Of a stretch of 64,000 nucleotides of DNA, positions 2 to 15,118 are shown in pieces. Both the position numbers and the translations under genes were made by a program. Source of the stretch: Chloroflexi bacterium bin125 (GTDB lineage Bacteria; Chloroflexota; Dehalococcoidia; Bin125); NCBI GenBank assembly GCA_002239025.1, contig MPNM01000002.1:1-64000 (forward strand), written 5' to 3'. Numbering within the stretch: the stretch's first letter is position 1; every line of letters begins with the position of its first letter. The notes under the pieces were generated by a model. It made no database searches. It was given only the letters and a program-made list of their open reading frames with translations, and was not told the DNA's origin.

Positions 2-856
2 CAACCACCACGTCGCCGCAGCAGGCGGGAGGTGAGGCCTAGCAACCACCATAGGGAGAGACCACGTCCGCCTCCGAGTGGCCTAGTCTTAGACCGATCA
101 ACTGGCCTAGATCAAGAGCGATCAAAACAGTACCTGAACGCGGTCGGGAAGCGAATGTCGTTGAACGTGTTGAATGGCAGGAGAGTGCCGCCAGTCATTC
201 CCTTGGGAGGACATCAGCCAGGGAAGGCGGCCGACATTGCAAGGGCCATGAAGACCTTCATCGGGGCGGACGTTCGGGTGTCAGTGGTGCTGGACCGAGA
301 CTATCGGTCGGATGAAGAGATAGTTGCGTGGGAGCAGGAACTGCAGCGGGAGTTCCATGTGGCGCACGTGCTGAGGAGGAAAGAGGTCGAAAACTACTTC
401 CTCAACCCGAAGCTGGTTGCGAAGACAATCACTGCGCGGAGAAGTGAATCTCCGACGAGCGAAGAGAAGGCCATCGAACTGCTCGAGTCAATCACAGACG
501 ACCTGCGCGACACGGCCGAAAGCCAGTTTCTGGCTCGATACCTGGAGTACGGAGGTAAGACGCGCCGAGGTACTGACCATTCGACACTGACAAAAGATGC
601 GCTCGCGCAGTTTCGGGTACGCTGGTCATCACTGCCCGGGCGACTGGACTTGGTATCTGGCAAGGAAGTGCTTCGCCGACTTAACAGGCTGCTCCAAGCT
701 GAAGGCCGGAAGGCGTTGACGATAGGCAATTTGTCCACGCATATGACGGAGGCCGAGATTCCACTTGAGTTGAGCGCACTGTTGAAGCAGCTCGATCAGC
801 TTTTGGTGAGCAAGGGCGACTCACGACCAGGAAGGCGGGAACGTTCCGGCGTCTGA
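2..856 (+). CDS. C-terminal fragment of an OLD/TOPRIM-type ATPase (5' end missing or decayed)
   Basis: The reading frame is open from base 2; the first usable start is GTG at 32 and an ATG lies at 155. From the GTG, residues 55-60 (IPLGGH) and the acidic motif VVLDRDY (84-90) followed by RRKEVENYFL (115-124) match the TOPRIM nuclease/primase fold at the C terminus of OLD-family and related AAA ATPases. The first 35 or so residues are Pro/Arg-rich and do not look like coding sequence. The VEG-type glutamate strand that normally begins a TOPRIM domain is not visible, and neither is any Walker A motif, so the ATPase half is outside the window or lost. OLD-family proteins are common in phage defence, which fits the methyltransferase/kinase genes nearby. 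The fold call is fairly good; whether the gene is functional is doubtful. Confidence 0.5.
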   Translation, partial: QPPRRRSRREVRPSNHHRERPRPPPSGLVLDRSTGLDQERSKQYLNAVGKRMSLNVLNGRRVPPVIPLGGHQPGKAADIARAMKTFIGADVRVSVVLDRDYRSDEEIVAWEQELQREFHVAHVLRRKEVENYFLNPKLVAKTITARRSESPTSEEKAIELLESITDDLRDTAESQFLARYLEYGGKTRRGTDHSTLTKDALAQFRVRWSSLPGRLDLVSGKEVLRRLNRLLQAEGRKALTIGNLSTHMTEAEIPLELSALLKQLDQLLVSKGDSRPGRRERSGV

Positions 857-1579
857 GCATGGATTTGTCCGCTTCCTCCCGGATTCCCCAGTGCTGTGCT
901 CCGCCTGCAGGTTCCGCCTAGCACATCGTACCCATGGTCTCGTCGTCGGAGTGGGCGGCCAGTCTCGTTCTGGCCCATTGACCATCGGGCGTTGGACGGC
1001 AGCCGCAAGGCCGACCTAGAGACAGATCCTCACGGGAAGAGAAACCCCTCCTTCTGACTGGCTGCCGTGTTGCGTTGCACGGCTGGAACCGAAGAGCCAG
1101 GTAAGGATGACTCGGTCCCAACCGAGATTAGCGAGCTTCTGATTCTCTGAGTTCATGACTACAGCGCGACCTCCCAGGAAAAAGTTCGCAGTTCGGTCTC
1201 GTGAGGGCCATCACCCTAACATAACGCAGCGCGTTTGGTTTGTAGTTCTTGTCGGAGATCTGAGGATCTTGACTTCTGGATTCAGCGGCGGGCAAGTGCG
1301 CTGATTGCGGGATAGTGGGTGCCGGCCGCGAGTGCGACTCCTGTTGGTTACACCATTCTGACTGGTCATGGAGCACCATCGCCTATCTCTGTTCCTCACG
1401 CCGCTGGCCGCGAGGAGACTGATGTGGAACCGATTGGCACAACATCGGCACATCGCGAACAATGAGCCGAACTTGTCCAACTCAGCGCACCTGCCTATAG
1501 CGCGCTATCGCGCTCAGACGAACGCTGCGCCATCCCAAAGCGAGCCGGCATGAGGAGAAACTGATTCACCCCTTGCCGG
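857..1579. other. Intergenic stretch carrying repeat copy A
   Basis: There is no convincing gene here. Short open frames exist on both strands but lack family features or ribosome binding sites. The only recognisable content is direct-repeat copy A (1097-1216). It separates the TOPRIM fragment, which reads rightward, from the leftward methyltransferase/kinase module. Confidence 0.6.
1097..1216 (+). repeat. Direct repeat copy A (about 120 bp)
   Basis: This segment begins CCAGGTAAGG and contains GAAAAAGTTCGCAGTTCGGT near its right end. By eye it aligns over its whole length with 14987-15106 in the same orientation, with scattered substitutions and few indels. The best conserved block runs from about 1165 to 1203. 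A shorter copy of that block recurs at about 7604-7645. No transposase or integrase is visible nearby. Confidence 0.75.
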
Positions 1580-2296
1580 TCAGATGAAACTGTCTGGCTG
1601 TGGAAGAGCTGCCTTCAATCCGAGCCACGGAGACCCACTACTAGCGTTCACTGCCTTGTACTGCCACTCCAGCCACTGGAGCAGATAACGACGCTGAGTG
1701 CCGCTACCTCCATTGCTCTTCCTGTCAACATGCCTTGGCCACTCGTCCTGAAAAAGTTCTCCAAGGACGAATTCAGCACATGCAGCTGGCGTAGCCACGA
1801 TGAACGGCAGCCTTGGCACTTCCAACCATTGCTTGAGAGGCTCGCCTAGTTGCGCGTGGAAGAAGCATCCAGGCGGGTCTCCGGCAGCGATCTCCATCCG
1901 CCACTCATACACAAGTCTTGGCGAGTCTTCCCTCGATAGGTCGAAGACCGTGGCCGTCGTACTGGCATTCTGGACAGAGAACCGCCGTTTCGGCCCCACC
2001 TCCTCGAGCGGAGTAATGTCCCAAGTCGTCGAAACCTCAGCTTGAACAGTCTGCCTTGAGCCGGATCTACGCCTGAATCCCTTCGTGGGGATGGTGCGTA
2101 GAGGATCTTCTCTTGTGATCTGCAATACTTGAGGCGATCTGTTGGGCGTGCGAGCGATTTGGCGAAGGGCGCCGGCAACGGCGAAGAGCTGATGGGTCGA
2201 CTCGAAGAACTTTGCAGCGTTTGCCGCAAACGCCTTCGTTTCTTGCTCGAGATCCTTGAACGAGAGCTCCAGAAATCCCGAGCGCTCGCTATCCAT
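1580..2296 (-). CDS. Unrecognised protein, last gene of the methyltransferase/kinase/response-regulator run
   Basis: This is a 238-residue soluble protein with no motif I recognise. The ATG at 2296 is preferred because it overlaps the stop of the upstream response regulator by 8 bases, which suggests translational coupling; in-frame starts at 2335 and 2323 would overlap further. The N terminus is predicted helical (FKDLEQETKAFAANAAKFF). The middle is beta-rich with a run typical of a folded domain (DITPLEEVGPKRRFSVQN). The C terminus is Trp-rich (LLQWLEWQYK). There is no signal peptide or membrane segment. Its position, last in an operon with a sensor-like ATPase and a response regulator, makes a partner or effector role possible. 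That is inference from position only. Confidence 0.6.
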   Translation of the reverse strand: MDSERSGFLELSFKDLEQETKAFAANAAKFFESTHQLFAVAGALRQIARTPNRSPQVLQITREDPLRTIPTKGFRRRSGSRQTVQAEVSTTWDITPLEEVGPKRRFSVQNASTTATVFDLSREDSPRLVYEWRMEIAAGDPPGCFFHAQLGEPLKQWLEVPRLPFIVATPAACAEFVLGELFQDEWPRHVDRKSNGGSGTQRRYLLQWLEWQYKAVNASSGSPWLGLKAALPQPDSFI

Positions 2297-3458
2297 TGGA
2301 ATCCTCGATGCGATGCCGGTCATCAGGAAGCACATAGCTCTTGAGATCGGGGTGGTCGTCTACGGTCTCAATCCTGATGACGGGCAGCGTTGCGAAAGAC
2401 GGCCATTCATCCAGCTGCAGGCGAACCACGCTATCCACAGACGAGAGCTCACCAGCGGGGTCAAAGTCCTCATTGAGAACTGGAACAACTGGTGTGCCTG
2501 CAATAATCCCATTCGCTGAGCCGGCGGCTTCGCTTACACGCCGGTTCACCAAATCACCGGAAAATGGATTGCCATCCGTGAGCCGCCACACGAGGTCCGT
2601 CACTCCAGCCTTCCACCAACGATCGCCAAGCAGAGAATTGAAGGGCCCCATGTAGCGCACCTTCCCGAGTTCTTCCGAGAGTTCGCTCGTGCCGGTCTTT
2701 ATGAGTTCCGCTAGTCCTTCAACTTCCATGCGGAGGTGTGCGGCCACATGCTCGATGGGCCAGAGGCAACTCGGATATGGAAGAATGCGATGCAAGAGCC
2801 ATCGGATGAATGGCGCTGCGCTCCGATGACGAGCGGCTACCTGAGAGATGTCACCGTGAATTGGTCCAAAGCAGGTTACGACATCCTCTCGCGCATCGAC
2901 CTCCCAAGGTTCCTTGTCTCCGAGGCCAAGAAGTCGATAGACCTCAATTTCACTCTCACTCGCGTCTGGCCATGTTGGCCCAAGTTGACTAAACCCTGCA
3001 GCGAGCGACAAGAGGGTTTTCTTGCGCCTTGGCTGATCGCGGCCCTTGAAAACGAACCAGTCTAAGTTCGTCAATCTCGCGATCAGGTGCTCGTGACGTT
3101 CTCCATATCGCAGCCTCGCTTCAGGGAACGCATCATCATCGCCCGAGTACAGAACAAAGCCCGGCGGTGTGTCCCCGCGCTCGACGCGCTTTGCCAAGAG
3201 GTGCGACCGCAGCACCTCAATCAGAGCTAATCCATTCATGGGTTTCAGCCCGGGATTGCCTAAGCTATCCCTCTCTTGCCACTTGTCCAGGCGATAGTCC
3301 ACAACGACAAGCTGTGCGGATTCCAACTCATCAGCTTCTATGCTGTCGGGTGTCCTGGGAAGAACAACAGCTGGCTGCCCGACGAGGTCGCCGGCGATTG
3401 CACTAGCATCGGGCAAATCATCATCAATCACAAAGATTGTCGGAAGCTCGGAAGTCAC
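2289..3458 (-). CDS. Response regulator with unrecognised C-terminal effector domain
   Basis: This is a 389-residue two-component response regulator. The GTG at 3458 lies four bases after the TAA of the upstream kinase gene, and the receiver domain begins directly after it (TIFVIDDDLPD). All receiver landmarks are present: the acidic cluster D12-D14, phospho-acceptor D54 in VVVDYRLD, S105 in LYSGDDD and K138 in FVFKGRD. The remaining 250 or so residues contain Trp/Pro-rich stretches (PFIRWLLHRILPYP, LLGDRWWKAG) and resemble no DNA-binding winged helix, GGDEF, HD or phosphatase domain that I know. The kinase partner is almost certainly the product of 3463-5769. The output is therefore phosphorylation-gated but chemically unknown. 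An in-frame extension up to 3674 overlaps the kinase gene and is rejected. Confidence 0.8.
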   Translation of the reverse strand: MTSELPTIFVIDDDLPDASAIAGDLVGQPAVVLPRTPDSIEADELESAQLVVVDYRLDKWQERDSLGNPGLKPMNGLALIEVLRSHLLAKRVERGDTPPGFVLYSGDDDAFPEARLRYGERHEHLIARLTNLDWFVFKGRDQPRRKKTLLSLAAGFSQLGPTWPDASESEIEVYRLLGLGDKEPWEVDAREDVVTCFGPIHGDISQVAARHRSAAPFIRWLLHRILPYPSCLWPIEHVAAHLRMEVEGLAELIKTGTSELSEELGKVRYMGPFNSLLGDRWWKAGVTDLVWRLTDGNPFSGDLVNRRVSEAAGSANGIIAGTPVVPVLNEDFDPAGELSSVDSVVRLQLDEWPSFATLPVIRIETVDDHPDLKSYVLPDDRHRIEDSNG

Positions 3459-3462
3459 GCCA

Positions 3463-5769
3463 TTACCCTCGAGCTCGTGTAGGTAATGTGAATTCAACGT
3501 GAACTGAGTAGTTTCCGCTTGGCTCTGCAAAACGAATCGTGCCACCGTACTCTTCGAGTAGTGCTCTTGTGATCGGAAGGCCGAGCCCCATACCTTGGCC
3601 AAGCACTGGATCAACACGATCCGAGGTGGTTTCGAACGGCAAGAACCAATGCTCTGACTCGGCGATGTCAACAATTGCCCCAGTATTTTGTAGGGATACC
3701 AACACTGTCTCCCTATCTTCGCGCTTCACAAGCCGGCTACTTGCGTCGATCTGGCCTCCTTGGCCAGCCGCCTTAATGGCGTTCGTCAAAAGATTGAGCC
3801 AGATGCTTACAAGCTCGGAACGGAACATAGGAAGCGAACGATGCTCAGCGTCGATGCGGTTACGAACCGATACTCCCATCGCATTGATTGAAGGATGCAG
3901 AATCTCACACGCAGAATCGAAAACACTGCGCATCCGTTGTCTGCTCCGCCGACGCCTAGCATCCGCCGAAGCGATATCGACCAAGTAAGAAGCCTGCCGC
4001 TCCAGTCCTTGTCGGATATCGCTAACCGCTTGGGCGATTTGTCCAAGCGCTGCTGACTCTGGTCCGGTAAGCCCGCCGCGCTCGCGAAGTCTTGCCAGTC
4101 GTGAGTCGAGACCTTGCACCACGCCTACCAGACCTCCGACTTCATGACTGAAGGCCGCGAGCTGTAATCCTGACGAAGCCAGAACAAGGATCGCCGCCCA
4201 TCGGTTGAGCCTCTCCCTTTCTGCTTCACTAGCCTCTCGGAGTGCATTACTCGCGCGCATCACCTTGTCTCTTGCCTGCTTGACTTCGCCATCGTCCAAG
4301 CTCGTCGTCACATCATTTAGAGCTGCTGTGGCAGCGTCTATACCAGTGTGGTAAACCTCATCTAGCTTGGCTGCTTGACGAGATTTACCGTTTCGCGGGT
4401 TTTCTGTAAGTACTTGTTCCGCTTTGGCTGATCGCAAGGCTTGGCGGGCTCTCGTGTTGAAATCGATTGCTGTGCGAACTATCGTCTCTACGGCGTCTAG
4501 CGACCGCCCAGGTACGAAGCCTTCTCTGTTGACCAACATCTTCAGGTCTGGTGCATTCTGCTCGGTGAGGAAAACACCTCCTAGCAATTGACGATTGGGG
4601 AGCGTGAGCAGACCTTCATTGTCCTGAACATGCCGAACCAGTGCGTCCGTATCGAATCCCGCTAGATCTCGTAGGCGGGTTAGCGATCGTTGCCGCCGCG
4701 TGCTCTCAAGGTCGAGAAAGAGCCAGTCATTTCCCTGCTCCCCATATGGGAGTACCCGAAAGCCTTCCATGAAAACACGCACACCGGAAACGCCATCCAG
4801 CCATCTGCGGGCCTCTGCAGGAGCATCAGCAGCACCCAGCCTTACCAACAAGCGCGCTTGAAACCTCGGGCGCGTCACGTCATACGGCAACTGCCACGAC
4901 GAGTCAATGGGCTTTACTTCCCCGTGGTCACGCTCGAGCTGACGTGTTGGGAGGTTACGCGCTCGAACAGTGCCATCTACCGAGGTGGCGTCAATGTCGA
5001 TAATCCAGCTTGCATTGTCAACGAGAGTGCGCCAATACTCGTCACCAACAGCAAAGTCGCCTTCAAGTGCTACGGTCATCCCCTGATCGACGCGAGATGA
5101 ATCGCGAACTAGAGGAGTGCTGAAGAGCGGCCGAAATGAGGATAACGAACTCTCGATCGGTTGCGTGAGCACATCGGGTGGGGCTGCCGAGTTAACCTCG
5201 CCAACGAATCGTGATCGCTCTCGATCCGTCCAGCGTCTTCTGAGGCGATTGAGCGTGATCTGTGTACCGCAGGTCTGTCCAGAGCGCCTCTCAACTGCGC
5301 TTATAGTGATCGCGTTGGAAGACGCAACTTCGTCCAGGGTCGTAACAGATTCAATGCGATCCCAGTCTATCGTCGCATCGATTCCGTCACTCTGTTCATC
5401 TCTTGGGATGGAGAGAATGCGAATGCTGCGAGCGAGCTTATGGGCGGCAAGCCTGCCGATCCCTTTCTCACCAGTGAGTTGACGCTCAAACCTCTTAGAG
5501 CGACGTGAGTCTTCTCTTTTGGAGCGGCCAGCAATGCGGAGGAAACCCTTCCGAAACTCCTCTTCGGTCATGCCATTCCCGTCATCTGTGACTACGATGA
5601 CGCCCGTTTCGGGATCTGCGAGCGATTTGCCGTAAATGGTGACGTGCGTCGCATCGGCGTCATACGAGTTCTTGACCAGCTCGTTGAGGGCCGTCGAGTC
5701 GCGGCCCACCAAGAGTTCGCCCAACTCGCGGAACAAGTGAGTATCGACAGTGAAGTGAGGGGACCCCAT
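3463..5769 (-). CDS. Dual GHKL protein: N-terminal Hsp90/MORC-like ATPase plus C-terminal histidine kinase
   Basis: This 768-residue protein has two separate GHKL ATP-binding modules. The N-terminal one (about 1-180) has NELVKNSYDADA (29-40), DDGNGM (62-67) and TGEKGIGRLA (99-108), the Hsp90/MORC/MutL pattern (HATPase_c_3). Residues 190-500 form a linker region with beta-rich and helical parts. The C-terminal module is a histidine-kinase core: H-box FSHEVGG with His542, N-box LLTNAIKAA (661-669) and G-box GQGMGLG (724-730). The G1 aspartate motif reads QNTGA rather than DNGxG. No transmembrane segment or PAS/HAMP domain is seen, so sensing would be cytoplasmic, perhaps through the N-terminal ATPase. 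The response regulator follows four bases downstream. MORC-like ATPases of this kind are known from bacterial conflict systems; a defence role here is inference. Confidence 0.82.
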   Translation of the reverse strand: MGSPHFTVDTHLFRELGELLVGRDSTALNELVKNSYDADATHVTIYGKSLADPETGVIVVTDDGNGMTEEEFRKGFLRIAGRSKREDSRRSKRFERQLTGEKGIGRLAAHKLARSIRILSIPRDEQSDGIDATIDWDRIESVTTLDEVASSNAITISAVERRSGQTCGTQITLNRLRRRWTDRERSRFVGEVNSAAPPDVLTQPIESSLSSFRPLFSTPLVRDSSRVDQGMTVALEGDFAVGDEYWRTLVDNASWIIDIDATSVDGTVRARNLPTRQLERDHGEVKPIDSSWQLPYDVTRPRFQARLLVRLGAADAPAEARRWLDGVSGVRVFMEGFRVLPYGEQGNDWLFLDLESTRRQRSLTRLRDLAGFDTDALVRHVQDNEGLLTLPNRQLLGGVFLTEQNAPDLKMLVNREGFVPGRSLDAVETIVRTAIDFNTRARQALRSAKAEQVLTENPRNGKSRQAAKLDEVYHTGIDAATAALNDVTTSLDDGEVKQARDKVMRASNALREASEAERERLNRWAAILVLASSGLQLAAFSHEVGGLVGVVQGLDSRLARLRERGGLTGPESAALGQIAQAVSDIRQGLERQASYLVDIASADARRRRSRQRMRSVFDSACEILHPSINAMGVSVRNRIDAEHRSLPMFRSELVSIWLNLLTNAIKAAGQGGQIDASSRLVKREDRETVLVSLQNTGAIVDIAESEHWFLPFETTSDRVDPVLGQGMGLGLPITRALLEEYGGTIRFAEPSGNYSVHVEFTLPTRARG

Positions 5770-5914
5770 GGGTGACCTTTACCCTGTCGATTCTGTAACG
5801 GCACTCGGCGCGAGCATCTGAAATCCTCCACTTTCGACGGTCGCTTGCAATCGGCCTGCCAAGTGAATCATGGTGCTGGAGCTAGATCCTTCACGTCCGC
5901 CCGGATCCACGTTA
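5770..5914. other. Gap between methyltransferase and dual-ATPase genes
   Basis: This 145-bp gap in the otherwise tight minus-strand run could hold a separate promoter for the kinase/regulator part. No clear promoter or terminator is visible. Confidence 0.3.
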
Positions 5915-7159
5915 TCAGCCCTTTGGTAGAGAACGGAAGTCAGCAAGAAGGCGGCTGACTCCCGAGGCAGTGATTCTTCGGTAGCCGCCGCTCACCGGCC
6001 GAGAGTGCCGAACCAAGGTGGCAGATGCCGCACCAGACATCAGCCAATCGAGCATTGCCTGCGTATCCACTGGCGTGCCGACTTTCACTGCGAACGCGGA
6101 GTTGAGGATGACCACACCATCCTCAACGATGGCTCCGCGAGGTTCGCGAAAGATCTCTGGCAAGACCAGTCGAGTTCCGAGGACGGCGAGCGGAGGACAT
6201 TGGATGAACAATCCTGGCCCGGCGGCACGGGAACTGAACGAGCCTCGGTGCGCGGCTATGAACGCCGCCAGGTCCGAGCGCTGTTTTGCCACTACTGGCT
6301 TGATTCGTGAGTCGCACTCGACGTACGGGAACACAATGAAAGGCCGATCCTTGAGCAGCCAACCTTGGCGAATGTCGCGTCCCCGTACAACGCTCCGTAC
6401 GTGGTGCGGCCGGAGCTTCTTGAGCCAATTGTCACTCTCCTCCCGAACAAACACCGAGTTTGCTCCAGTGGCTACGCCGACGCTCACCTGTGCATCCACA
6501 TCAAACAGGGGCGAAGCCCACTGATGCAAAGGTCCCCATGGCTCATCATTGCGATCAAAGATCAGAAGCTCAGGGATGACTGCGACATCGCTCGCGAATG
6601 CGGACTGAACATCCCGGTTGATCCTCCATTGAGAGTAGGCATTCAAGACGTCCCGCAGTCGCGCGGCAGCCGGACGTGTTTCGAGTCCGGCAGGTATCAG
6701 AAAGACCCCCCGGCCTCTTGGCTCAAGAATTTGCAACGCACGTTCGACAAAGGCGAACCAGAAGTCGAACTGGCTCCGCGCCGAGTAGAAGCGATCTCTA
6801 AGTCCATTTCGCCTGGCATGGCCTATGTCGACGGCTCTCTCGTATGGCGGATTCGAGATTATGCCCGAGAACCTGACGCCAAGATCGAGAGTGAGAATGT
6901 CACCTCGCACAAATCGGTGAGCTTCCTCCGGTTCGTTTCTCTCTGTGATGTCAACCGCCACGATTTTCGTGCGTGGCCACCGCGTGGCCACCGCCGCCGT
7001 AAGGGTCCCTGAGCCGGACCCCATATCGAGCACCAGTTGTCGCGGACCGAGCAGTTCGGCCATCTGATAGGCCACCGTGGCGGAGGTCTCGACAGTGACG
7101 TTGCGCAAATGAACTCTCACCACTTCCAGTACGTCCTCTTCCGGTACACCCTCGAGCAA
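5915..7159 (-). CDS. N6-adenine DNA methyltransferase (Eco57I/HsdM-like, NPPY type)
   Basis: The protein would methylate adenine N6 in DNA using S-adenosylmethionine. Motif I is LDMGSGSGTL (44-53) and the catalytic NPPY lies at 103-106; the order (motif I before NPPY, variable C-terminal half) fits gamma-type enzymes. The last 200 residues would carry target recognition, as in single-chain Eco57I-like enzymes. The only start in this frame is TTG at 7159, but the frame stays open upstream to 7229 and the extra codons (YVPPNFRKRHSILLEG) look like genuine protein. The true start is therefore unclear: a non-standard codon, or an N terminus truncated by rearrangement. It heads the minus-strand run containing the dual ATPase and response regulator. 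A restriction partner could be the divergent nuclease-like gene at 7700. Confidence 0.82.
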   Translation of the reverse strand: MLEGVPEEDVLEVVRVHLRNVTVETSATVAYQMAELLGPRQLVLDMGSGSGTLTAAVATRWPRTKIVAVDITERNEPEEAHRFVRGDILTLDLGVRFSGIISNPPYERAVDIGHARRNGLRDRFYSARSQFDFWFAFVERALQILEPRGRGVFLIPAGLETRPAAARLRDVLNAYSQWRINRDVQSAFASDVAVIPELLIFDRNDEPWGPLHQWASPLFDVDAQVSVGVATGANSVFVREESDNWLKKLRPHHVRSVVRGRDIRQGWLLKDRPFIVFPYVECDSRIKPVVAKQRSDLAAFIAAHRGSFSSRAAGPGLFIQCPPLAVLGTRLVLPEIFREPRGAIVEDGVVILNSAFAVKVGTPVDTQAMLDWLMSGAASATLVRHSRPVSGGYRRITASGVSRLLADFRSLPKG

Positions 7160-7699
7160 AATGGAATGGCGCTTGCGGAAGTTTGGAGGAACGTATGCAG
7201 CATGGCAGTTTAGCTCGCGAAGCTTAGACTACGCAGCCTTAGGTCATCGGTATCAGTAAAGAGCGTAGTCGGGAGTGAAGCTGCCTAGCCTCGGGGGGGT
7301 TCCTCAGCAGGACCGTTGTGGTCAAGCTCGAAGCCGCAGCAAGAAAGATCGACTGGACGTTCTGCAGACGGGCGATCCAGATGTTGTCCTGGCATGCGCA
7401 TGTCACCGACTCGTTCGAGCGACACTTCTCCGTGCGATGCCGCTAGCCTCCAGAGAACTCGTGGTCAGGCTGGCGGATACTCACTTAGGCCTCGCGCTTC
7501 ATCGTTGAGCCGCCGATCTGGAAGGCCGACGGGACAATCACAGTAGGATCGGGCACGTTGCGCGTGGCCATCTAGGACGGCCAAGGCAGCAGGATTCAGA
7601 GAACCACCTCCCAAACGAAGGTTCGCAGTACGGTCTCGTTAGGCTCACTAACATCCAACCATCTACTGGCCGCTCATCTGATCAGATAACTGTGGCCAT
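7160..7699. other. Intergenic stretch between divergent methyltransferase and nuclease-like genes
   Basis: This 540-bp stretch separates the leftward methyltransferase from the rightward nuclease-like gene and should contain both promoters. The first 70 bases continue the methyltransferase frame in antisense. A short open stretch near 7318-7450 (+) has no start codon context or recognisable product. The right part holds the partial repeat copy B. Confidence 0.5.
7591..7650 (+). repeat. Partial direct repeat copy B
   Basis: The block from 7604 (CCACCTCCCAAACGAAGG) through GTTCGCAGTACGGTCTCGTT at 7621-7640 matches the most conserved part of copies A and C, in the same orientation. The left two thirds of the 120-bp unit are not recognisable. 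It sits between the methyltransferase module and the nuclease-like gene. Confidence 0.6.
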
Positions 7700-9103
7700 G
7701 TGTGGTCAATCGAGCCTGGCTATTGGCAAGTTGGTGCTAGTACGCTCAGTGATTGGCACCACAAGCCCGTAGAAAGCAGACCCTCGCCAATGCCATCAGG
7801 CTGGCCTACTACGGAGAAGAAGCGCCCCAGAGTGGCTGCGATCGGATTGAACGATTCGCAACTGGCCGAGATCCGCCCGTTCTGCGGAGATCTCAGACCG
7901 GCGCAATCCGTGCAGGCATATCTGGCAGACTTCGAATGGTGGGAGACTGACGTCGTTGTGGCAAGTAGTCTCGACCAGGCCGTGATAGATCCTGGAGTTC
8001 ATCTGTTGACGGTTGGACCGATTTCGCTTGGGGTGTGGCAGCGAAATCGCAGTCGGCCGGGCCAGCACTTTCGAGAACTGGTGCGTATGCACACCCGTAG
8101 CCGCGCACGGGAGTTGGCAGTTGCGTACCAATGCCCGCCGACCTACCGCAATCTGGCCGAGACACTCGCGAAATCGCTGGGCAGCGACCAAAAGCCGCCG
8201 CCTACGATCACCGTCTCTGAAGCCGGTGAGTTGCTTCGGGAACCCGTGGTGTTGACTTCAGGAGATCAACCGGTGGCGTTGCGATTGCAGTGGGCCGACC
8301 GCGATTGGGGGCATTCCTCCGAGATCATCAAGGTAGATGTCGTGGCGTTGTACCTGCCGTTGCTCTCGAACCTTTCACATTGGTTCAGAACCTTCTTGGC
8401 CGACATCAGCGAGTTCGATCCAATACGAGTGCCCCAAGATCTCCATCTCTTCGGCGATTCATCTGACTGGTACACGCCAGAGGAGACTTCCCTTGCACGG
8501 CAGATCTCAGAGATCGAACAAGAGATTGAGCGACTGAAGAACGACCGGACTCGGGCAAGAGCGCAGCTCGCAAGAGCGGGGAAGACCGCCGACGCAACCG
8601 TTCGGCGCGCGATCACCGAATACGGAGACGAGCTAGTAGCCGCGGTCAGCGAGCTCCTGGGAGAGATCGGCTTCATCGTCGAAAGAATGGACGATGCGAT
8701 CGAGCCAAACGAAGCGAGGCGTGAAGATCTTCGGCTCACCCTCACTGGCCGACCCGATTGGGAAGCCATCGTAGAGGTCAAGGGCTACGGCAAAGGCATC
8801 AAGACCAACGACGCCAACAAGGTGCGGATGCACAGAGATCGCTACATCGCGGAAACAAGACGAGCGCCAGATCTGACCATGTGGTTGGTCAACCCGTTCC
8901 GTGAGATGGACCCTTCGCTCCGTCCCGCGCCGGACCAGCATGTTGATCAAACCGCGAAGATAGTAGGTGCGGCCTGCGTGCTCACAACGGACCTGTACCA
9001 ACAGTGGAAGCTGTTCAAGGAAGGCCAATGCGAAGCGAGTGAGATTGTGCAGCGGCTGGTCGCGGCGGAGCCTGGATTGTGGCGTCCGACCTCGGCTGGT
9101 TGA
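7700..9103 (+). CDS. Putative PD-(D/E)xK-family nuclease with central coiled coil
   Basis: This 467-residue protein is not a named family to me. Residues about 262-295 are a charged coiled coil (QISEIEQEIERLKNDRTRAR). After it come EDLRL (342-346) and, across a short turn, WEAIVEVKGYGKG (354-366). An acidic residue followed by E-x-K at the end of a beta strand is the PD-(D/E)xK nuclease signature, here D343, E359 and K361. Lys375 and Arg380 could complete a basic helix. The N-terminal 250 residues look like a folded alpha/beta domain (VAAIGLNDSQLAEIRPF) of unknown function. The start is uncertain: GTG/ATG codons occur from 7700 to about 7790 with no strong ribosome binding site. Divergent from a DNA methyltransferase, it may be a restriction enzyme. 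That is inference. Confidence 0.6.
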   Translation: MWSIEPGYWQVGASTLSDWHHKPVESRPSPMPSGWPTTEKKRPRVAAIGLNDSQLAEIRPFCGDLRPAQSVQAYLADFEWWETDVVVASSLDQAVIDPGVHLLTVGPISLGVWQRNRSRPGQHFRELVRMHTRSRARELAVAYQCPPTYRNLAETLAKSLGSDQKPPPTITVSEAGELLREPVVLTSGDQPVALRLQWADRDWGHSSEIIKVDVVALYLPLLSNLSHWFRTFLADISEFDPIRVPQDLHLFGDSSDWYTPEETSLARQISEIEQEIERLKNDRTRARAQLARAGKTADATVRRAITEYGDELVAAVSELLGEIGFIVERMDDAIEPNEARREDLRLTLTGRPDWEAIVEVKGYGKGIKTNDANKVRMHRDRYIAETRRAPDLTMWLVNPFREMDPSLRPAPDQHVDQTAKIVGAACVLTTDLYQQWKLFKEGQCEASEIVQRLVAAEPGLWRPTSAG

Positions 9104-9274
9104 AGCGCGCTTCAGGCGGCATCACGAATCGCCGTCCAACGACCCCGACTCGGTATCAAACAATACGAAGTCGGAGCCAATGAACATTCCTCCCGTGATA
9201 ACAAGCATCGAGCTGTCGCGATCCGCTGGTTGTGCCTCAGCAGTGTTTACCGCCGCCGGGACCAACCCGGGGGG

Positions 9275-9622
9275 CTAGCGCGTTGGCAGGGTCAGCTCGC
9301 GCTCTCTGATCGGTTCAATCTCCAGTTGCACGGTCAGCGGTTCAACATCCAAGCCCCACAGCTTGAGCAGTTGCTCGTTGAACCTCGAACCCTCGCTGGG
9401 ACGCACGACGCTCAGCATCCGGTCGTCGCCGCAGACCTAGAGGTTGCCCGGACGTTCCTCGATGACCAACCTACTGTCGTGGATGTGGCGGGGAGTGCAG
9501 TCGGGTTCCTCGTCGATTGAGTGCGACGCCCTGCGGGGCGAAGCGGGCTCCCGTTGCGACTGCTTAAGGTCAGTCCGACACACGAAGCACCAGGACGGCC
9601 GTTCCTGCTACGACTGACGCAT
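9275..9622 (-). pseudogene. Zinc-finger-like small gene interrupted by two in-frame TAG codons
   Basis: Reading leftward from ATG at 9622, one frame runs to the stop at 9275 with only two interruptions, both TAG (9608-9610 and 9437-9439). The translation looks like real protein: a CxxC pair in SWCFVCRTDL, then CTPRHIHDSRLVIEERPG, then after the second TAG VCGDDRMLSVVRPSEG, and an ordered C terminus (LLKLWGLDVEPLTVQLEIEP). The Cys and His residues suggest a zinc-binding module. I do not recognise the family. It follows the coiled-coil gene by 31 bases on the same strand. The simplest reading is a decaying gene; amber readthrough is the less likely alternative. Confidence 0.5.
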
Positions 9623-9653
9623 TAGACCGAGTGCTGCCCCCAGAACCCCAGGG

Positions 9654-10377
9654 TCAGCAACCGCAAGCCCAGCGTCGAAGCTGAGCCCAGCGCCGTCGGC
9701 GCCGCACCCGATCCAGCGACTGATTGAGCAGGCGCAGTTCGCGCTGCCGCCTGAGTCCGTCCCATGAGCGCTCGGCGGGGGGCAGGGTCAGGTGGTGCTC
9801 GCCGACCAGCACGAGCTCCAGCTCAAGCAGCCGCTCATCGGCCTGCAGCTGCTCCAACGTGCTAGACGCTCGCTTGCGTCTCCGCCTCGCCCGCCGCCAC
9901 TCGGTGATCGTTGGCGCGGCCCGGCCGTAGACCCGTCCCTCCCCCGATTCCTTCTCCGCTGTGACCAGCTGGGGGTAGGGGCGATGGAGGATGTCCGCCG
10001 CCCTCGCTGGTGATCTCGCTTGCGCCGAAGCCTCGTCCGACGCAGCCAGCCACGTGGCACCCCTACTCTCTTGCAGCACCTCCACCTGTTCCCGCAGTGC
10101 TGCCACCGTCGCCCCGAGCTGTTCCAGCGCCGCTCGGATCTCGGGCAGGTCTCTCGACACCGCCACCTCCACTGTGTCCGGACGCCTGTTGGAACCGGCC
10201 AGTTCCAGTGCCGACTCCTTCGGCAGCGTCCGAGCCAGCCAGGTCCGCCTCGTACTGCCCCAGCGCCCGGCAGAGCTATTCACTCAGGCCGCCGGTTTCC
10301 TCCCGTCTGTGTGTGCGTTCGCTGAGGCCCAGCTGGTCCGCCGCTTGCCGCCGTCCATGGGTATGGAGGATGTCCTA
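9654..10377 (-). pseudogene. HTH plus coiled-coil protein remnant, split by stop codons and a frameshift
   Basis: An intact frame from 10283 to 9654 encodes up to 209 residues: a heptad-like helix (EIRAALEQLGATVAALREQ), a low-complexity linker, then a strongly basic helical region (EWRRARRRRKRASSTLEQ) and a charged C-terminal helix. Just upstream, in another frame (about 10374-10290), the translation DILHTHGRRQAADQLGLSER resembles a helix-turn-helix and continues through one more TAG into LCRALGQYEADLAG. The two parts together look like one DNA-binding protein broken by a frameshift and amber stops (10375-10377 and about 10281). If the 209-residue frame is expressed alone it would lack the HTH. 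The family is not recognised. Neighbouring OTC-like and propeller genes read the other way. Confidence 0.45.
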
Positions 10378-10507
10378 TAGGAAAGGGGCCAGCCGCCCCG
10401 CCAGCCAACCTGAGTCTTGCTTGCTCCCGTGGTCCACTCACGCACATTCGAATAGATTCGGGACCCATATGTTGCAGGATATCCAAACGAGGCAGGGAGG
10501 CGACGCT

Positions 10508-11443
10508 ATGCAAAAGGACTTCATCACCTTTCTTGATTGGTCGGCAGGCGAACTGAGCGACCTGGTGGAAGCGGCACAGAACTTCCGCCAGTTGTGGGTG
10601 AGGGGTAAATCTCCACCAGCCCTCAAGGGGCGGCGCATCGCCCTGATGTGGGGTGCGACGGGATTCCGGAACCGAGTTGCGTTCGAGTTGGGCATAGCCG
10701 ATCTCGGTGGAGGGTCTGTCGAAATTCTCGGCACTGTCGACGTGAACGAACCTCTAGAAGATGTGGCCCGGTACTTGGATAACTGGTTCGATGCGATCGT
10801 CGCCAGGACAGCAACCCACGACCAAATGCTGAGATTGGCTCGTTCGGTTCGAGTTCCGGTGATCAACGCCAGAACACCGTTCAACCACCCCTGCGAGATA
10901 CTGGGAGACTTGGCCTACATCAAGGAACAAAGAGGCGACTTGACCGACTTGCGTGTCGCTTTCGTTGGCGAGGCGACGAACCTCGGGCATTCTTGGTTCG
11001 AGGCTGCGGCAAGATTTCCAATACACGTCGTCCAAGTGTGCCCGGCGGGATATGAGGTCGAAGCCCAGTTCCTTCAAAGGATCGCCCGCGAGGCCAAAGG
11101 AGAAGTGTCCGTTTCTCAGGATATGCACTCTGCATTAGCCGATGCAGATGTGATCTATACCGACTGCTGGCCGGCAAGAGGAACCGCCGAAGATCAACAG
11201 AAGATCAGGGATCTGTTCCTTCCTTACCAAGTCACGGAGGAGATACTGAAGGTAAGTCCGCAGGATGCCCTCTTCCTTCCCTGTCCACCCGTTCACAGAG
11301 GCGAGGAGGTATCTGCAGGGGCGATGAACTGGCCTGGCTGCCGCGTGTACGAGGCGAAAGAGTACCTCCTACACGCACAGAATGCCCTCTTGGTCTCCCT
11401 GCTCAACGCTGGTGGAGAAGGTGTCCAAGAATGGTTGAGGTGA
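10508..11443 (+). CDS. Ornithine/aspartate carbamoyltransferase-family paralogue with altered motifs
   Basis: This 311-residue protein starts at ATG 10508 behind a good ribosome binding site (GGGAGG). The fold landmarks of carbamoyltransferases are all in order: the carbamoyl-phosphate region (49-60, GATGFRNRVAFE), HPCE (127-130), the second-domain strand FVGEATNLGHSW (152-163), YTDCWPARG (217-225) and RGEEV (264-268). Several catalytic strings differ from classical OTC/ATC: the S-x-R-T-R loop reads TGFRNR, HPxQ reads HPCE, and the HCLP ornithine loop reads PCPP. The enzyme probably still binds a carbamoyl-phosphate-like donor, but the acceptor, and perhaps the donor, is unlikely to be ornithine with standard chemistry. 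No arginine-biosynthesis gene is nearby. The longer frame from 10010 runs antisense over the coiled-coil remnant and is rejected. Confidence 0.8.
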   Translation: MQKDFITFLDWSAGELSDLVEAAQNFRQLWVRGKSPPALKGRRIALMWGATGFRNRVAFELGIADLGGGSVEILGTVDVNEPLEDVARYLDNWFDAIVARTATHDQMLRLARSVRVPVINARTPFNHPCEILGDLAYIKEQRGDLTDLRVAFVGEATNLGHSWFEAAARFPIHVVQVCPAGYEVEAQFLQRIAREAKGEVSVSQDMHSALADADVIYTDCWPARGTAEDQQKIRDLFLPYQVTEEILKVSPQDALFLPCPPVHRGEEVSAGAMNWPGCRVYEAKEYLLHAQNALLVSLLNAGGEGVQEWLR

Positions 11444-11773
11444 GGGCAACGGAGTGTCGGCTGATTTCGCCTTCGAGTGAGCCAGAGATCAGCACCGTCT
11501 TAGTGGAGACGAACGAGGCCATTGCGCTGATGATGCTGGGTCACAGCTCTTGGACCCCGATATGCAGGCCGATAATGCCCCATACGGCTGAAGCATTTGC
11601 CAATCGGCGGATCGCGACTTTCCGCTGTAGCTAGCCGTCCAGTGAGGGCACGACCACCTACTCTCCAGGCAAGATCGACTCCCTCGATGTCCTGCTGTCT
11701 ATGCCAAGTTTGTCGAAGAGTGCCGTAGCGAAGCTGTCGCTTGACTCCCCACTAATCCTTGGAGGACGCTGCC

Positions 11774-11917
11774 ATGAGCAGTCAAGTAGTATCACTTGCT
11801 CTGATACGCGAGCACTGGCCGGACGTCTGGACTTGGCAGATATCTCTGGCGGAGCTCGCTCCTCCAAACTGGACAAAGTCAAGGACCTTCTCACTTACGT
11901 TCCGACTGGACCGTTGA
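11774..11917 (+). CDS. Possible small protein (47 aa)
   Basis: The ATG at 11774 is preceded by GGAGG at 11761-11765 with suitable spacing. The product is short and Trp-rich (REHWPDVWTWQISLAEL) with no homologue that I recognise. It may be a genuine small gene, or a remnant of a longer one, since the surroundings look degraded. Low certainty. Confidence 0.25.
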   Translation: MSSQVVSLALIREHWPDVWTWQISLAELAPPNWTKSRTFSLTFRLDR

Positions 11918-12058
11918 GATGACGCTGGCCCCGCGATGACTTTCAGTGATACCAGTGGCACGCCGAGTGATATGGGCCTCGTGACGAGGCAGATGGCTCA
12001 GCGAGTTCTTCCCGTATCCGAACGCTCGGACCGGTTCTGAGCGCTGAGCTTCGGTGCG

Positions 12059-12084
12059 GGAACTCCTGACCCTTAAGCGTCGTC
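12059..12084 (+). promoter_or_regulatory. Possible ECF-sigma-type promoter of the propeller gene
   Basis: GGAAC at 12059-12063 is followed 17 bases later by CGTC at 12081-12084, the usual spacing for extracytoplasmic-function sigma promoters. The ATG at 12094 is about ten bases further with no ribosome binding site, so the transcript would be close to leaderless. Two short motifs can occur by chance. Confidence 0.25.
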
Positions 12085-12093
12085 TCAACTCTG

Positions 12094-14601
12094 ATGAGAG
12101 TTTTTCTTGCAGGGTGCGTGCTGCTGATGGCAGCGGCTGGCGTAGGAACTGGCGCTGCGGCCGTATCGGGATCGCTCGTCGAGCGAGCGAGAGCGGACGA
12201 ATCTCTGCAAATGGGATCGCCTAGCGCCGGATCCACGCCAGTGCTGCCGTTCCATCCGCTCTGCGGCCTGGATACGCCACTCGTCTGGACGGAGGGACCA
12301 TATGTGGTGTTTCGGGAGTGGATTGCGGGCGACGGGTCGAGCGTATTCGTCTATGACGTTGGTCTGGGCAAGTATTGGATTGCGCTGGACCGGATACCCC
12401 TGACAGAAGTGCTGGTGGCCGGGGAGAAGCTGATTGTCTGGAGCGGGGATCAAATCCTCCGCGTCGGGTTGCATGGCTACACGGAACGATTGCTGTTCGA
12501 GCACAAGGAGATCCAGGAGCTACGGCTCTCGCCGGACATGAACAAGCTGGCTGTCTCGTATGGCAGACCGCTGAATCTCACGGTGTTCGAGGTCGGATCG
12601 GGTCAAGAGCTGTTGACCGTCGAGGCGGATGACTCGCGCCTCTTGTCGCTGAGGCAGATCGGATGGCTGAGCGACGACAATCCTGGCCGGTCGCTGACCC
12701 TGGGCGAGTGGAGCGAGGGCAGCGATGAACTCAACCTGCGTGCGCATCGCAACTTCCGTTGGTCTGACGAGCGCTTCGGCCTGCCCGAACAGCTGGCGAT
12801 CATCTCGCTCGATGATGAGATGTCCGTCCTGCCTGAAGGCTGGCTCCTGTCGGCAGGCCTGCGATACGGATTGAACCCGGGTGAGCTGGTCGGGGCGGAT
12901 CGCTTCTTCGAGTCGGACAAGTATCTGTGGAGCGAGTTCGACGTGGTCGACATGCAGAACGGTGAACTGCTCTGGACTGTCGAAGTCGATCAAGGTCAGG
13001 GGATTATCCCGTCCAACCCAAGCGTCTGGGGTCGCTGGAGAGACCTGAAGCGCGTGATCTGGGGATCTGAGCTGGAGCGTCTCGTGTACTTCGAGTATGG
13101 AGATCGACTTCCAGTTCATGCCTATGAGGACCTGGCAGAGGCGGCCGCCCGTACCTGGTGGGCCTGGGATGGCGCTGAGACCGACACAGGGATCACGGCC
13201 CATGTTCTCGATCTGGAGAGCGGGATAAACCGTGAGCTCACTCACCATCAATGGATCGCAATGGAAGAGAGTCACAATCTGATCTCGAGGCCCTGTCTCT
13301 ACTCAGGCAGAGGGGGCGATTGTCTGCTGACCGTTGAGTCACAGGTCCTCTGGCAGGGCAGTCCACATTTGATCGGGGTGATTCAGCCTGAACAGCCGCT
13401 CGCGTTGCGCGGCATCATCCTGCGGGAACAGGAGCAACTCACGTCCGTGTCCGACTCGCGGCCGAATGACGAGATCGTGGGTCCGCTGGTCAGCTACACG
13501 CTGCGCACTGCCGAGCGGGGGGCGGTCGGGCAGTCGGGCATGCAGTGGTTTCGGCGCGACCGGCTGATGGTGCACGATGCGGGCACAGGGCAAACATGGC
13601 CCGCTTTTGACTGGCGAGTGCCGTTTGGGGAGCCGAGCCCGCTTGATCTCAGGTTGACGCTGAATGGGTTTGTCGTGATCGAAGGAGACGTCGTTCGCTT
13701 CGCCGATCTTCAGGGAGTCAGCCGATCGATCCTGTTCGAAGAAGCCCTGCGCGAAAGGGAGTCGATCGCGCGTGTGGCGGTATCTCCAGACGGCCGATAT
13801 GTCGCGATCATGCTCTACAGGGACGAGACGCCGGTTGGCTATGTACACCCGGGCGAAGGGAATGCTCCCGCATCGTTCAGCGTCCTCGTGGTCGAGATCG
13901 CATCGGCCCGGACAACAGCGCGGCTCGACTTCGAGTACGCCGCCGTGAATGACTTCCCGTCCTATGGAATCTCCTGGAATGAAGAAGGTACGGCGCTCGG
14001 CCTGACCGCCTACCGCTATTCGGGAGTCTTCTGGGCTGGCACCGTCTATCCGGAGACAGGCGAGTTCAGTAAGCCGCCGACGGAGCGGTTTTTCGCGGAC
14101 GACATCTCGCCCGACTTTCGACACGGCTTGCGCGTCTGGATGGTCAACCAAGACGCTTACTCCAGTGGTCCCTTCCGTTACTCGGACCGAAACGAACCGA
14201 CGCAATTGCACGTGTTTGACTACGCAAGCGGAGAAGTGGTCTGGCGCTCGGAAATCCTTGGTGCACCGCCCTACACCAACCTCCATGATTGGCACTCAGC
14301 GGAGCAGGTTTTCTGGATCAGCGGCGGAGAGCGGACCTACTTCGACAGACAACAGAAACGAGTCGTTAACGTCATGAACGATGACGTGATCTCGATCGCG
14401 AACGTGTCGACCGGCGAGGTCAAGGTGATGAACGGCGCCGAGTACCTGGAGTGGATCGAGTCGGCCACACCCGAGGCAGAAGCCGGCGCAGTCGTGGATT
14501 GTCCGGACGACCGCGAGCAACTCTGCCAGGTGCTCCTGGAAGATTCGGTGATTGGAGAGGGGCGCTGGCTGCGGGTGGTGGGAGAGATGCCGGTCGACTG
14601 A
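12094..14601 (+). CDS. Secreted beta-propeller-like protein
   Basis: This 835-residue protein begins with a signal peptide (MRVFLAGCVLLMAAAGVGTG, small residues before about residue 34). The rest is built from repeated beta-rich units with WD40/TolB-like features: LRLSPDMNKLAVSYG (about 142-156), RVAVSPDGRYVAIML (about 564-578), YGISWNEEGTALGL and FVVIEGDVVRFADL. Repeats of the type hydrophobic strand, SPDG/SxDx turn, hydrophobic strand occur along most of the length, suggesting two propellers or a tandem-blade array. There is no catalytic motif, LPxTG or membrane anchor. Such proteins bind ligands or partners outside the cytoplasm; the role here is unknown. It stands alone between the OTC-like gene and repeat copy C, so it belongs to the accessory region. 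Confidence 0.65.
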   Translation: MRVFLAGCVLLMAAAGVGTGAAAVSGSLVERARADESLQMGSPSAGSTPVLPFHPLCGLDTPLVWTEGPYVVFREWIAGDGSSVFVYDVGLGKYWIALDRIPLTEVLVAGEKLIVWSGDQILRVGLHGYTERLLFEHKEIQELRLSPDMNKLAVSYGRPLNLTVFEVGSGQELLTVEADDSRLLSLRQIGWLSDDNPGRSLTLGEWSEGSDELNLRAHRNFRWSDERFGLPEQLAIISLDDEMSVLPEGWLLSAGLRYGLNPGELVGADRFFESDKYLWSEFDVVDMQNGELLWTVEVDQGQGIIPSNPSVWGRWRDLKRVIWGSELERLVYFEYGDRLPVHAYEDLAEAAARTWWAWDGAETDTGITAHVLDLESGINRELTHHQWIAMEESHNLISRPCLYSGRGGDCLLTVESQVLWQGSPHLIGVIQPEQPLALRGIILREQEQLTSVSDSRPNDEIVGPLVSYTLRTAERGAVGQSGMQWFRRDRLMVHDAGTGQTWPAFDWRVPFGEPSPLDLRLTLNGFVVIEGDVVRFADLQGVSRSILFEEALRERESIARVAVSPDGRYVAIMLYRDETPVGYVHPGEGNAPASFSVLVVEIASARTTARLDFEYAAVNDFPSYGISWNEEGTALGLTAYRYSGVFWAGTVYPETGEFSKPPTERFFADDISPDFRHGLRVWMVNQDAYSSGPFRYSDRNEPTQLHVFDYASGEVVWRSEILGAPPYTNLHDWHSAEQVFWISGGERTYFDRQQKRVVNVMNDDVISIANVSTGEVKVMNGAEYLEWIESATPEAEAGAVVDCPDDREQLCQVLLEDSVIGEGRWLRVVGEMPVD

Positions 14602-15118
14602 TTCGACTTGGCGGTACGGAAGCTCAAGTGTCCTGTTTCCGAGTTGCGGCAAAAGGCGTGATCCTGACGGAGTGAGTGGACAGGCAACGATTCTCGAAGT
14701 CGGCGGCCCAGGCGCGGCCAGTGTGTTGACGCCATAACTTAGCCCCATGGGTGGCGTCTCCTTCGGGAGGAGGGGCCAATAGCAGTTGCTCACAGTCAGT
14801 CGTGAGCATGTTCAAGGGGAGCTGAGCGTGCTACGGGCGCATGGACGCGCGCATGGACGCGACAAGAGGAGTAGTCCCGTAGCGAACCGAAGCGTGGCCG
14901 CTCCGCATGTGGATACGAAGCATCTGGACGTCCAAGGTCAACGCCAGCCAGTCCATTCAGATGAGCCGGATAATCGCCCATGAACTCCAGGTAAGGGGAC
15001 TCGAACCCAGCGGGGATTTGTGAGCTCCTGAGATTCTGAGTTGGTGACTAGAGCGCGACTTCCAAGAAAAAAGTTCGCAGTTCGGTCTCGTTAGGGGTAC
15101 CAGCCCGCCGTTTCCATC
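14602..15118. other. Intergenic stretch with small hairpin, 12-bp tandem repeat and repeat copy C
   Basis: No gene is supported here. A UUCG-type hairpin (TCTCC-TTCG-GGAGG, about 14757-14770) could end transcription from the propeller gene, although it has no T-run. GCGCATGGACGC occurs twice in tandem at 14837-14860. The right part is direct-repeat copy C. Confidence 0.5.
14987..15106 (+). repeat. Direct repeat copy C (about 120 bp)
   Basis: It has the same orientation as copy A and aligns with it from CCAGGTAAGG to the right end (TAGGGGTACCAGCCC). The right half, from GAGCGCGACTTCCAAG to GTTCGCAGTTCGGTCTCGTT, is nearly identical. It ends only 13 bases before the convergent methyltransferase gene, where the sequence changes from accessory to ordinary chromosomal content. 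The left part contains GGACTCGAACCC, the complement of a tRNA T-loop-like string, but no tRNA can be folded. Confidence 0.75.

What the first reader, a model, noticed from the sequence alone, without database searches (positions are those of the whole stretch)
3463..5769. Two GHKL ATP sites in one chain
A MORC/Hsp90-like clamp at the N terminus and a histidine kinase at the C terminus without any membrane or PAS sensor suggests that clamp closing (on DNA, RNA or protein) is the signal that sets the kinase. That would be an unusual sensing mode.
Basis: partly seen in the sequence, partly recalled or inferred. Interest (0 to 1): 0.6.

Follow-up and report, generated by a model that had tools for sequence, protein, structure and literature searches.

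The report
Clamp-kinase module beside DNA-marking enzymes
The protein really does carry two different ATP-binding units, a DNA-clamp type and a histidine kinase; it is the first gene of a mobile three-gene signalling module, found across bacteria and archaea, that sits beside enzymes marking a cell's own DNA, so it probably turns recognition of foreign DNA into a phosphorylation signal for defence.

Summary
Downstream lie a receiver protein (2289-3458; AlphaFold pLDDT 92, phospho-Asp54 in 61/61 relatives) and a third protein of unknown fold (1580-2296); upstream lies an Eco57I-type methyltransferase. In 91 homologues from bacteria and archaea (selected for similarity to this protein) the clamp ATPase motifs and His542 are essentially invariant. 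The receiver gene follows in 88 of 89 loci. In 67 of 89 a co-directional DNA-marking gene adjoins: 53 N6/N4 methylases, 8 C5 methylases, 6 phosphorothioation sspD genes; 0 of 82 pseudo-loci in the window. The third slot is swapped with HNH, PIN-like or metallo-beta-lactamase proteins. Best reading: a restriction-like defence module in which a paraMORC clamp feeds a His-Asp relay. The architecture and its R-M link were published in 2021 (HEF_HK/Response_reg_2, PMC8011034), but this family fails those Pfam models; its N6 and Ssp coupling and exchangeable third gene look new. That clamp closure is the signal is plausible and untested. New variant of a known kind.

The parts
3463..5769 (-). 768-aa two-GHKL protein (paraMORC-type ATPase + histidine kinase)
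   Evidence: ORF; Pfam; 91 homologues aligned
5218..5754 (-). N-terminal GHKL ATPase module, aa 6-184 (Glu30 codon 5680-5682)
   Evidence: HATPase_c_3 aa 26-145; NCBIfam BbrUII/HgiDII profile aa 6-184, 2.3e-27, below its equivalog cut-off; motifs 91/91
4480..5217 (-). region after the GHKL fold, aa 185-430, presumed S5-like transducer, with invariant Gly397 and Arg415 (NREGF)
   Evidence: conservation; S5 fold inferred, not modelled
3970..4197 (-). DHp/H-box helices, aa 525-600; His542 codon 4144-4146
   Evidence: H542 91/91, Glu543 87/91
3478..3816 (-). C-terminal HATPase_c kinase domain, aa 652-764; N-box Asn659/663, G1 Asn695 (3685-3687), G2 Gly726/728/730
2289..3458 (-). receiver protein, 389 aa (GTG start just after the kinase stop): receiver domain aa 1-165 with Asp12/13, Asp54 (3297-3299), Ser105, Lys138; C-terminal domain of unknown family
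   Evidence: A2/A4 conservation; AlphaFold pLDDT 92; receiver folds Z about 13; profile hits to solved receivers 6.7e-5
1580..2296 (-). third protein, 238 aa, start overlaps the receiver stop (ATGGATAG); unknown fold; His147 and Arg162 invariant; predicted effector or effector partner
   Evidence: 54 homologues in the same slot by BLAST linkage; no Pfam hit; AlphaFold pLDDT 86; no confident structural match
5915..7159 (-). Eco57I-type N6 DNA methyltransferase, 414 aa, NPPY motif; start codon uncertain
   Evidence: Pfam PF07669 1.1e-9; weak BLAST matches to methyltransferases at relatives' loci

Best explanation
The gene is the sensor-kinase of a mobile, modification-linked two-component defence module of four parts: (1) an enzyme that marks self DNA (here an Eco57I-type methyltransferase; elsewhere a C5 methylase or the Ssp phosphorothioation enzymes); (2) this soluble, presumably dimeric protein, whose N-terminal paraMORC/BbrUII-type GHKL clamp surveys DNA and, on ATP binding and closure on unmarked or foreign DNA, rearranges the helical stalk so that the C-terminal kinase autophosphorylates His542; (3) a receiver protein that takes the phosphoryl group on Asp54; (4) an exchangeable third protein that carries out the response (HNH, PIN-like or metallo-beta-lactamase proteins in some loci, an unknown fold here). 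Shown: domain anatomy, intact active-site residues of clamp, kinase and receiver, conserved gene order, linkage to three chemically different DNA-marking systems, exchange of the third slot, patchy distribution. Inferred: DNA as ligand, clamp closure as trigger, direction of the signal, phosphotransfer, effector role of the third protein, anti-phage function.
For: Two domains: and all 39 relatives scanned. Motif conservation in 91 homologues. Receiver: Asp13 and Asp54 61/61, Ser/Thr105 59/61, Lys138 52/61; fold Z about 13. Order kinase-receiver-third: receiver-type ORF immediately downstream in 88 of 89 loci with a downstream ORF. Kinase and receiver distances correlate 0.93, receiver and third 0.89, N and C halves 0.90. 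DNA-marking gene adjacent and co-directional in 67/89, against 0/82 pseudo-loci (where the only condition for the null was proximity); the MTase, C5/Vsr and SspB-C-D identities were confirmed on samples by profile. SspC and SspD profiles match in all 7 genomes whose locus carries the PAPS-reductase motif, and no GmrSD_N gene (the SspE-type domain) was found close to them. Third slot: HNH, metallo-beta-lactamase, PIN-like by motif. Patchy: 2 of 294 genomes of the class, none of the 14 other genomes of the genus. Precedent that a GHKL N-module controls a defence output: VcSduA E27A abolishes protection (PMC12137116).
Against: No experiment on any member of this family was found. The G1 Asp of the kinase is Asn throughout the window's subclade, so its ATP handling could be altered. 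The third protein has no recognisable nuclease motif here, and its fold is unknown. The receiver's C-terminal domain could be a DNA-binding output, which would make this a transcriptional system. The 80 collected loci are the best of 543 hits ranked by similarity to this protein, so full-length architecture is enriched by selection. DNA-marking genes were counted by sequence motif; only a sample was confirmed by profile.
Confidence: 0.57

Rival explanations
1. A soluble two-component regulator of gene expression: the receiver protein's C-terminal domain binds DNA or RNA polymerase and tunes expression of the neighbouring restriction-modification genes, as suggested for the HEF_HK/Response_reg_2 pair.
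For: Known precedent proposal (PMC8011034); the receiver has a conserved C-terminal domain of about 200 aa; response regulators commonly act on transcription (general knowledge).
Against: No Pfam DNA-binding domain in 61 receiver proteins. A third gene in the same slot is kept and swapped for HNH, PIN-like or MBL proteins, which a pure transcription switch does not need. The receivers paired with HNH or MBL partners are short (164-254 aa) and so lack most or all of that C-terminal domain.
Confidence: 0.22
2. The N-terminal GHKL domain senses nucleotide levels (ATP drain or phage nucleotide changes) rather than DNA, and the kinase reports NTP state.
For: Proposed in PMC8011034 for HATPase_c_3 + HEF_HK; the ATP-binding residues are invariant.
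Against: The long conserved region after the GHKL fold (aa 185-430, invariant Arg415) and the tie to DNA-marking genes are not needed for NTP sensing; the closest curated N-module profile is that of BbrUII/HgiDII restriction enzymes.
Confidence: 0.1
3. The C-terminal kinase fold is a structural dimerisation or clamp element and the system restricts DNA directly without phosphotransfer.
For: G1 Asp replaced by Asn in the window's subclade; other paraMORC proteins act with fused nucleases and no kinase (PMC12137116, PMC2292703).
Against: His542 91/91, N-box Asn663 90/91, receiver Asp54 61/61 with the acidic pair and Ser/Thr conserved: hard to explain without phosphotransfer.
Confidence: 0.08

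Closest known systems
HEF_HK / Response_reg_2 two-component-like pair (Bellieny-Rabelo et al. 2021, PMC8011034)
   Same: HATPase_c_3 + DHp + HATPase_c in one soluble protein, receiver gene next door, linked to restriction-modification genes
   Different: Neither PF19191 nor PF19192 matches the window proteins or genome above cut-off, and HEF_HK matches only 1 of 39 relatives weakly. That set is tied mainly to C5 methylases and Vsr; this one mainly to N6 methylases, plus Ssp phosphorothioation, with a conserved third gene not described there
paraMORC GHKL ATPases of restriction-modification loci (Iyer et al. 2008, PMC2292703)
   Same: N-terminal GHKL with intact motifs, laterally mobile, next to DNA methylases
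   Different: paraMORC1-5 carry nuclease, TIR or unknown C-termini; no histidine-kinase fusion or receiver was found described there
VcSduA / paraMORC3 Shedu (PMC12137116)
   Same: GHKL clamp module controlling a C-terminal output; the motif-I Glu is needed for defence
   Different: The output is a fused PD-(D/E)xK nuclease, not a kinase
BbrUII/HgiDII family type II restriction enzymes (NF050001)
   Same: N-terminal about 180 aa homologous (2.3e-27)
   Different: The C-terminal restriction part is absent; the score is far below the family cut-off
Ssp phosphorothioation defence (SspABCD with SspE or SspFGH)
   Same: In seven relatives' genomes SspC and SspD genes lie at the locus, and no GmrSD_N (SspE-type) gene was found nearby
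   Different: The window itself uses a methyltransferase. An Ssp cluster without nuclease but with a nearby histidine-kinase two-component system was noted in Acinetobacter baumannii (PMC12421847)
Detocs (own knowledge, not tested)
   Same: Phosphorelay proteins used for phage defence
   Different: From memory, no clamp ATPase and no DNA-marking enzyme

Membership tests
HEF_HK/Response_reg_2 TCS-like system (PMC8011034) | HEF_HK domain PF19191 in the kinase | tested here: not met
   no hit in P0001 or own genome; 1 of 39 relatives at 0.0015. The profile is narrow: it also misses Vsr/C5-type controls
HEF_HK/Response_reg_2 TCS-like system (PMC8011034) | Response_reg_2 domain PF19192 in the partner | tested here: not met
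   no hit in the window protein; own genome only 13.3 bits on another contig, below the cut-off
HEF_HK/Response_reg_2 TCS-like system (PMC8011034) | HATPase_c_3 at the N-terminus and HATPase_c at the C-terminus of one soluble protein | tested here: met
HEF_HK/Response_reg_2 TCS-like system (PMC8011034) | adjacent receiver gene and restriction-modification neighbourhood | tested here: met
paraMORC ATPase (PMC2292703) | N-terminal GHKL domain with intact ATP-binding motifs | tested here: met
paraMORC ATPase (PMC2292703) | S5 domain after the GHKL domain | tested here: inconclusive
   conserved region aa 185-430 with Arg415; no structure was predicted for this protein
MORC family proper | MORC-specific motif unifying the family | not tested
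   only weak MORC2 similarity, E 0.17, aa 27-78
Histidine kinase | H-box His, N-box Asn, G2 glycines | tested here: met
Histidine kinase | G1-box Asp (DxGxG) | tested here: not met
   Asn695 and loss of the second Gly, Asn in 17/17 of the window's subclade; so filed as a predicted kinase of variant G1 box
Histidine kinase | autophosphorylation | not testable with these tools
   needs biochemistry
Receiver domain | acidic pair, phospho-Asp, Ser/Thr, Lys and the receiver fold | tested here: met
BbrUII/HgiDII restriction enzyme (NF050001) | full-length match over the equivalog cut-off of 550 bits | tested here: not met
   95.9 bits, N-terminal part only
Known PADLOC defence systems | receiver or third protein matching a PADLOC model | tested here: not met
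   0 hits for 61 receivers; 3 isolated weak hits among 55 third proteins, none for the window

The most novel reading that the evidence does not exclude
A restriction principle in which recognition of foreign DNA is relayed by His-to-Asp phosphotransfer to an exchangeable effector, so that one clamp-kinase/receiver module works with N6-methyl, C5-methyl or phosphorothioate self-marks, and the third protein of the window is an effector of a new fold.
Probability: 0.33. Interest if true: 0.82.

Novelty: new variant of a known kind. Interest (0 to 1): 0.6.

Why it matters
If right, this is a way of doing restriction in which sensing and response are separated by a phosphorelay, letting one sensor core be paired with different self-marks and different effectors. 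It would offer a test case for how GHKL clamps transmit closure to another catalytic unit, and could explain Ssp clusters that lack their usual nuclease (for example the one noted in Acinetobacter baumannii, PMC12421847). It also gives a family-level set of invariant residues for direct mutational tests.

Tried and rejected
Viral-contig scan with P0001: no relatives. Phage records: 2 weak, unannotated, partial hits. Fold searches of the third protein: best Foldseek E 0.15, best VIA Z 5.5 over 92 residues at 4.1 A (a viral DNA ligase), treated as no match. Profile of the third family against solved structures: nothing at E 1. The receiver's C-terminal domain was not searched alone, since the receiver fills the list. 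A remote link between the third family and the 'fam10' third proteins is suggestive only (hmmsearch 2e-4 for one member, hhalign probability 9.5). Idea that the flanking 19-bp repeats are integron attC sites: rejected, no matching R'' arm seen. tRNA remnant: ARAGORN and Rfam negative. Idea that the system is one cassette cut out by these repeats: not supported, since the conserved arms suggest the repeats may bound other segments. DefensePredictor (PMC13092281) abbreviates HATPase and REC in a figure legend; its text does not say whether this family is meant.

Full report
Observation. The ORF 3463-5769 is real, on the minus strand, 768 aa. Pfam finds HATPase_c_3 at aa 26-145 (1.8e-20) and HATPase_c at aa 652-764 (5.4e-21). 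The N-terminal 180 residues match the NCBIfam profile of BbrUII/HgiDII restriction enzymes (2.3e-27, below the equivalog cut-off), then MutL; the C-terminal part matches many sensor kinases. Solved-structure hits are histidine kinases for the C-terminal half and MutL/PMS2/MORC2 weakly for the N-terminal half. No PAS domain and no membrane segment was found.

Neighbourhood in the window. The gene sits in a minus-strand run: Eco57I-type methyltransferase 5915-7159 (PF07669 1.1e-9), the two-GHKL gene, a 389-aa protein 2289-3458 whose GTG start lies just after the kinase stop, and a 238-aa protein 1580-2296 whose ATG overlaps the receiver stop (ATGGATAG; sequence). The 389-aa protein has no Pfam match, but by structure prediction (pLDDT 92) its first 165 residues are a receiver domain (best matches Z 12-13.6, about 115-130 residues at 2.5-3.5 A), and a profile of the family finds solved receivers by sequence (6.7e-5).

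The family. A plasmid search gave full-length relatives in Clavibacter, Rhizobium and the archaeon Halomicrobium; their loci show the same order, most with a DNA methylase. A scan of about 85,000 species genomes gave 543 relatives, of which the best 80 were kept; they span many bacterial phyla and archaea. In 91 aligned proteins the clamp residues Asp62, Gly64, Gly66, Gly100, Lys102, Gly103, Gly105 and Arg415 and the kinase His542 are 91/91; Asn659 and Asn663 are 90/91. Glu30 and Asn34 are also 91/91, but they lie in the search pattern. The G1 Asp is Asn in all 17 members of the window's subclade and Asp in 72 others, so adenine contacts in the kinase site may differ there. In 61 receivers Asp13 and Asp54 are invariant, with Ser/Thr105 in 59 and Lys138 in 52. 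All 39 relatives scanned have both GHKL domains. Distances of the two halves of the protein correlate at 0.90, of kinase and receiver at 0.93, and of receiver and third protein at 0.89, as for one inherited unit. In the class of the host genome only 2 of 294 genomes carry the receiver family, and none of the 14 other genomes of the genus: a mobile, patchy system.

Gene order and partners. A receiver-type ORF is immediately downstream in 88 of 89 loci that have a downstream ORF; the exception is L043 (the divergent groups were judged by the acidic pair and Asp by eye). The third slot holds one uncharacterised family in 55 loci including the window (no Pfam match in any member; His147 and Arg162 invariant in 50 aligned members), HNH endonuclease-like proteins in 7 (one confirmed by Pfam), PIN-like proteins in 4 (motifs by eye), a metallo-beta-lactamase protein in 2 (one confirmed) and a further uncharacterised group of 10. 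A DNA-marking gene is adjacent and co-directional in 67 of 89 loci: 53 N6/N4, 8 C5, 6 with the PAPS-reductase motif. The same motif test, by proximity alone, found none near 82 pseudo-loci in the window. Profile checks on samples: N6_Mtase/Eco57I, C5 methylase and a Vsr-C5 fusion, SspB-SspC-SspD upstream and PbeA downstream at L061, and DISARM DrmA/DrmB upstream at L096. Seven of eight genomes tested carry SspC and SspD at these places; GmrSD_N (the domain of SspE-type effectors) occurs only elsewhere in those genomes, or not at all. SspF-H were not tested.

What is known. [quoted passage not shown] GHKL/paraMORC proteins in restriction loci were described in 2008 (PMC2292703). A paraMORC3/Shedu protein needs its motif-I Glu and its nuclease for defence (PMC12137116). 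An Ssp cluster without a nuclease but with a nearby histidine-kinase two-component system was noted in A. baumannii (PMC12421847). The window's proteins and genome do not match PF19191 or PF19192 above cut-off, and the N-half of a Vsr/C5-type relative aligns with P0001 over 466 columns (26%, 5e-24) while its kinase half is far diverged. I therefore file this as a sibling branch: it works like the published pair but does not pass its domain tests. Those profiles are narrow and also miss Vsr/C5-type controls.

Mechanism. Shown: an intact clamp ATPase site, the kinase His and N/G2 boxes, and an intact receiver, genetically tied to DNA-marking genes, with an exchangeable third gene. Inferred: the clamp closes on DNA lacking the self-mark, possibly with help from the marking enzyme; closure is passed through the helical linker to the DHp helices; His542 is phosphorylated; Asp54 of the receiver takes the phosphoryl group; the third protein is released or activated. 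The coupling of the same module to three chemically unlike marks argues that the sensor does not read one specific modification chemistry alone, or that it adapts in its less conserved parts. The main rival is a transcriptional regulator of the locus.

Limits. The homologue set is biased towards full-length similarity. DNA-marking genes were counted by sequence motif, with only a sample confirmed by profile. The null for adjacency comes from one genome window. Taxonomy of the host was not determined. No structure of the two-GHKL protein was computed.

Noticed in passing
window 1184-1202, 7621-7639, 15073-15091 (+): A 19-bp motif GTTCGCAGTWCGGTCTCGT within a longer (about 40-100 bp) repeat occurs 3 times in the window, same strand (expected 0.01), and 11 times in the whole genome with none in the reversed control. 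Some copies share about 90 bp of left arm, others only the 40-bp core, like attachment sites. Two copies flank the four-gene system. No tRNA, no integron attC; nature unknown.
   Followed up: partly
window 32-856 (+): ORF near the contig start resembling the TOPRIM part of OLD/Ari-type proteins (weak PADLOC hits PDC-M55B 0.001, AriAB 0.003), possibly a truncated defence gene.
   Followed up: no
window 7700-9103 (+): Divergent 467-aa ORF upstream of the methyltransferase with a coiled coil and a PD-(D/E)xK-like stretch (RPDWEAIVEVKGY) by eye; no Pfam hit.
   Followed up: no
L061 (Alistipes MAG) 2682-14112; also L045, L050, L072, L073, L080, L097: The same kinase-receiver-third module lies with SspB-C-D phosphorothioation genes (PADLOC), with no GmrSD_N (SspE-type) gene nearby; these loci fall together in the kinase tree. 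Possible new Ssp effector module.
   Followed up: partly
L096 2254-7043: Kinase module downstream of DISARM-type DrmA and DrmB genes.
   Followed up: no
L108 4944-7214 (Klebsiella variicola plasmid): A relative of the kinase is annotated as three separate ORFs behind an N-6 methylase, apparently a broken copy.
   Followed up: no
P0001 Asn695, window 3685-3687: G1-box Asp to Asn change is fixed in the window's subclade (17/17) while the phospho-His is kept; its effect on nucleotide use is unknown.
   Followed up: partly
L043: Only locus where the gene after the kinase is not a receiver; it looks like an NAD-dependent epimerase, perhaps a degenerate or rearranged locus.
   Followed up: no
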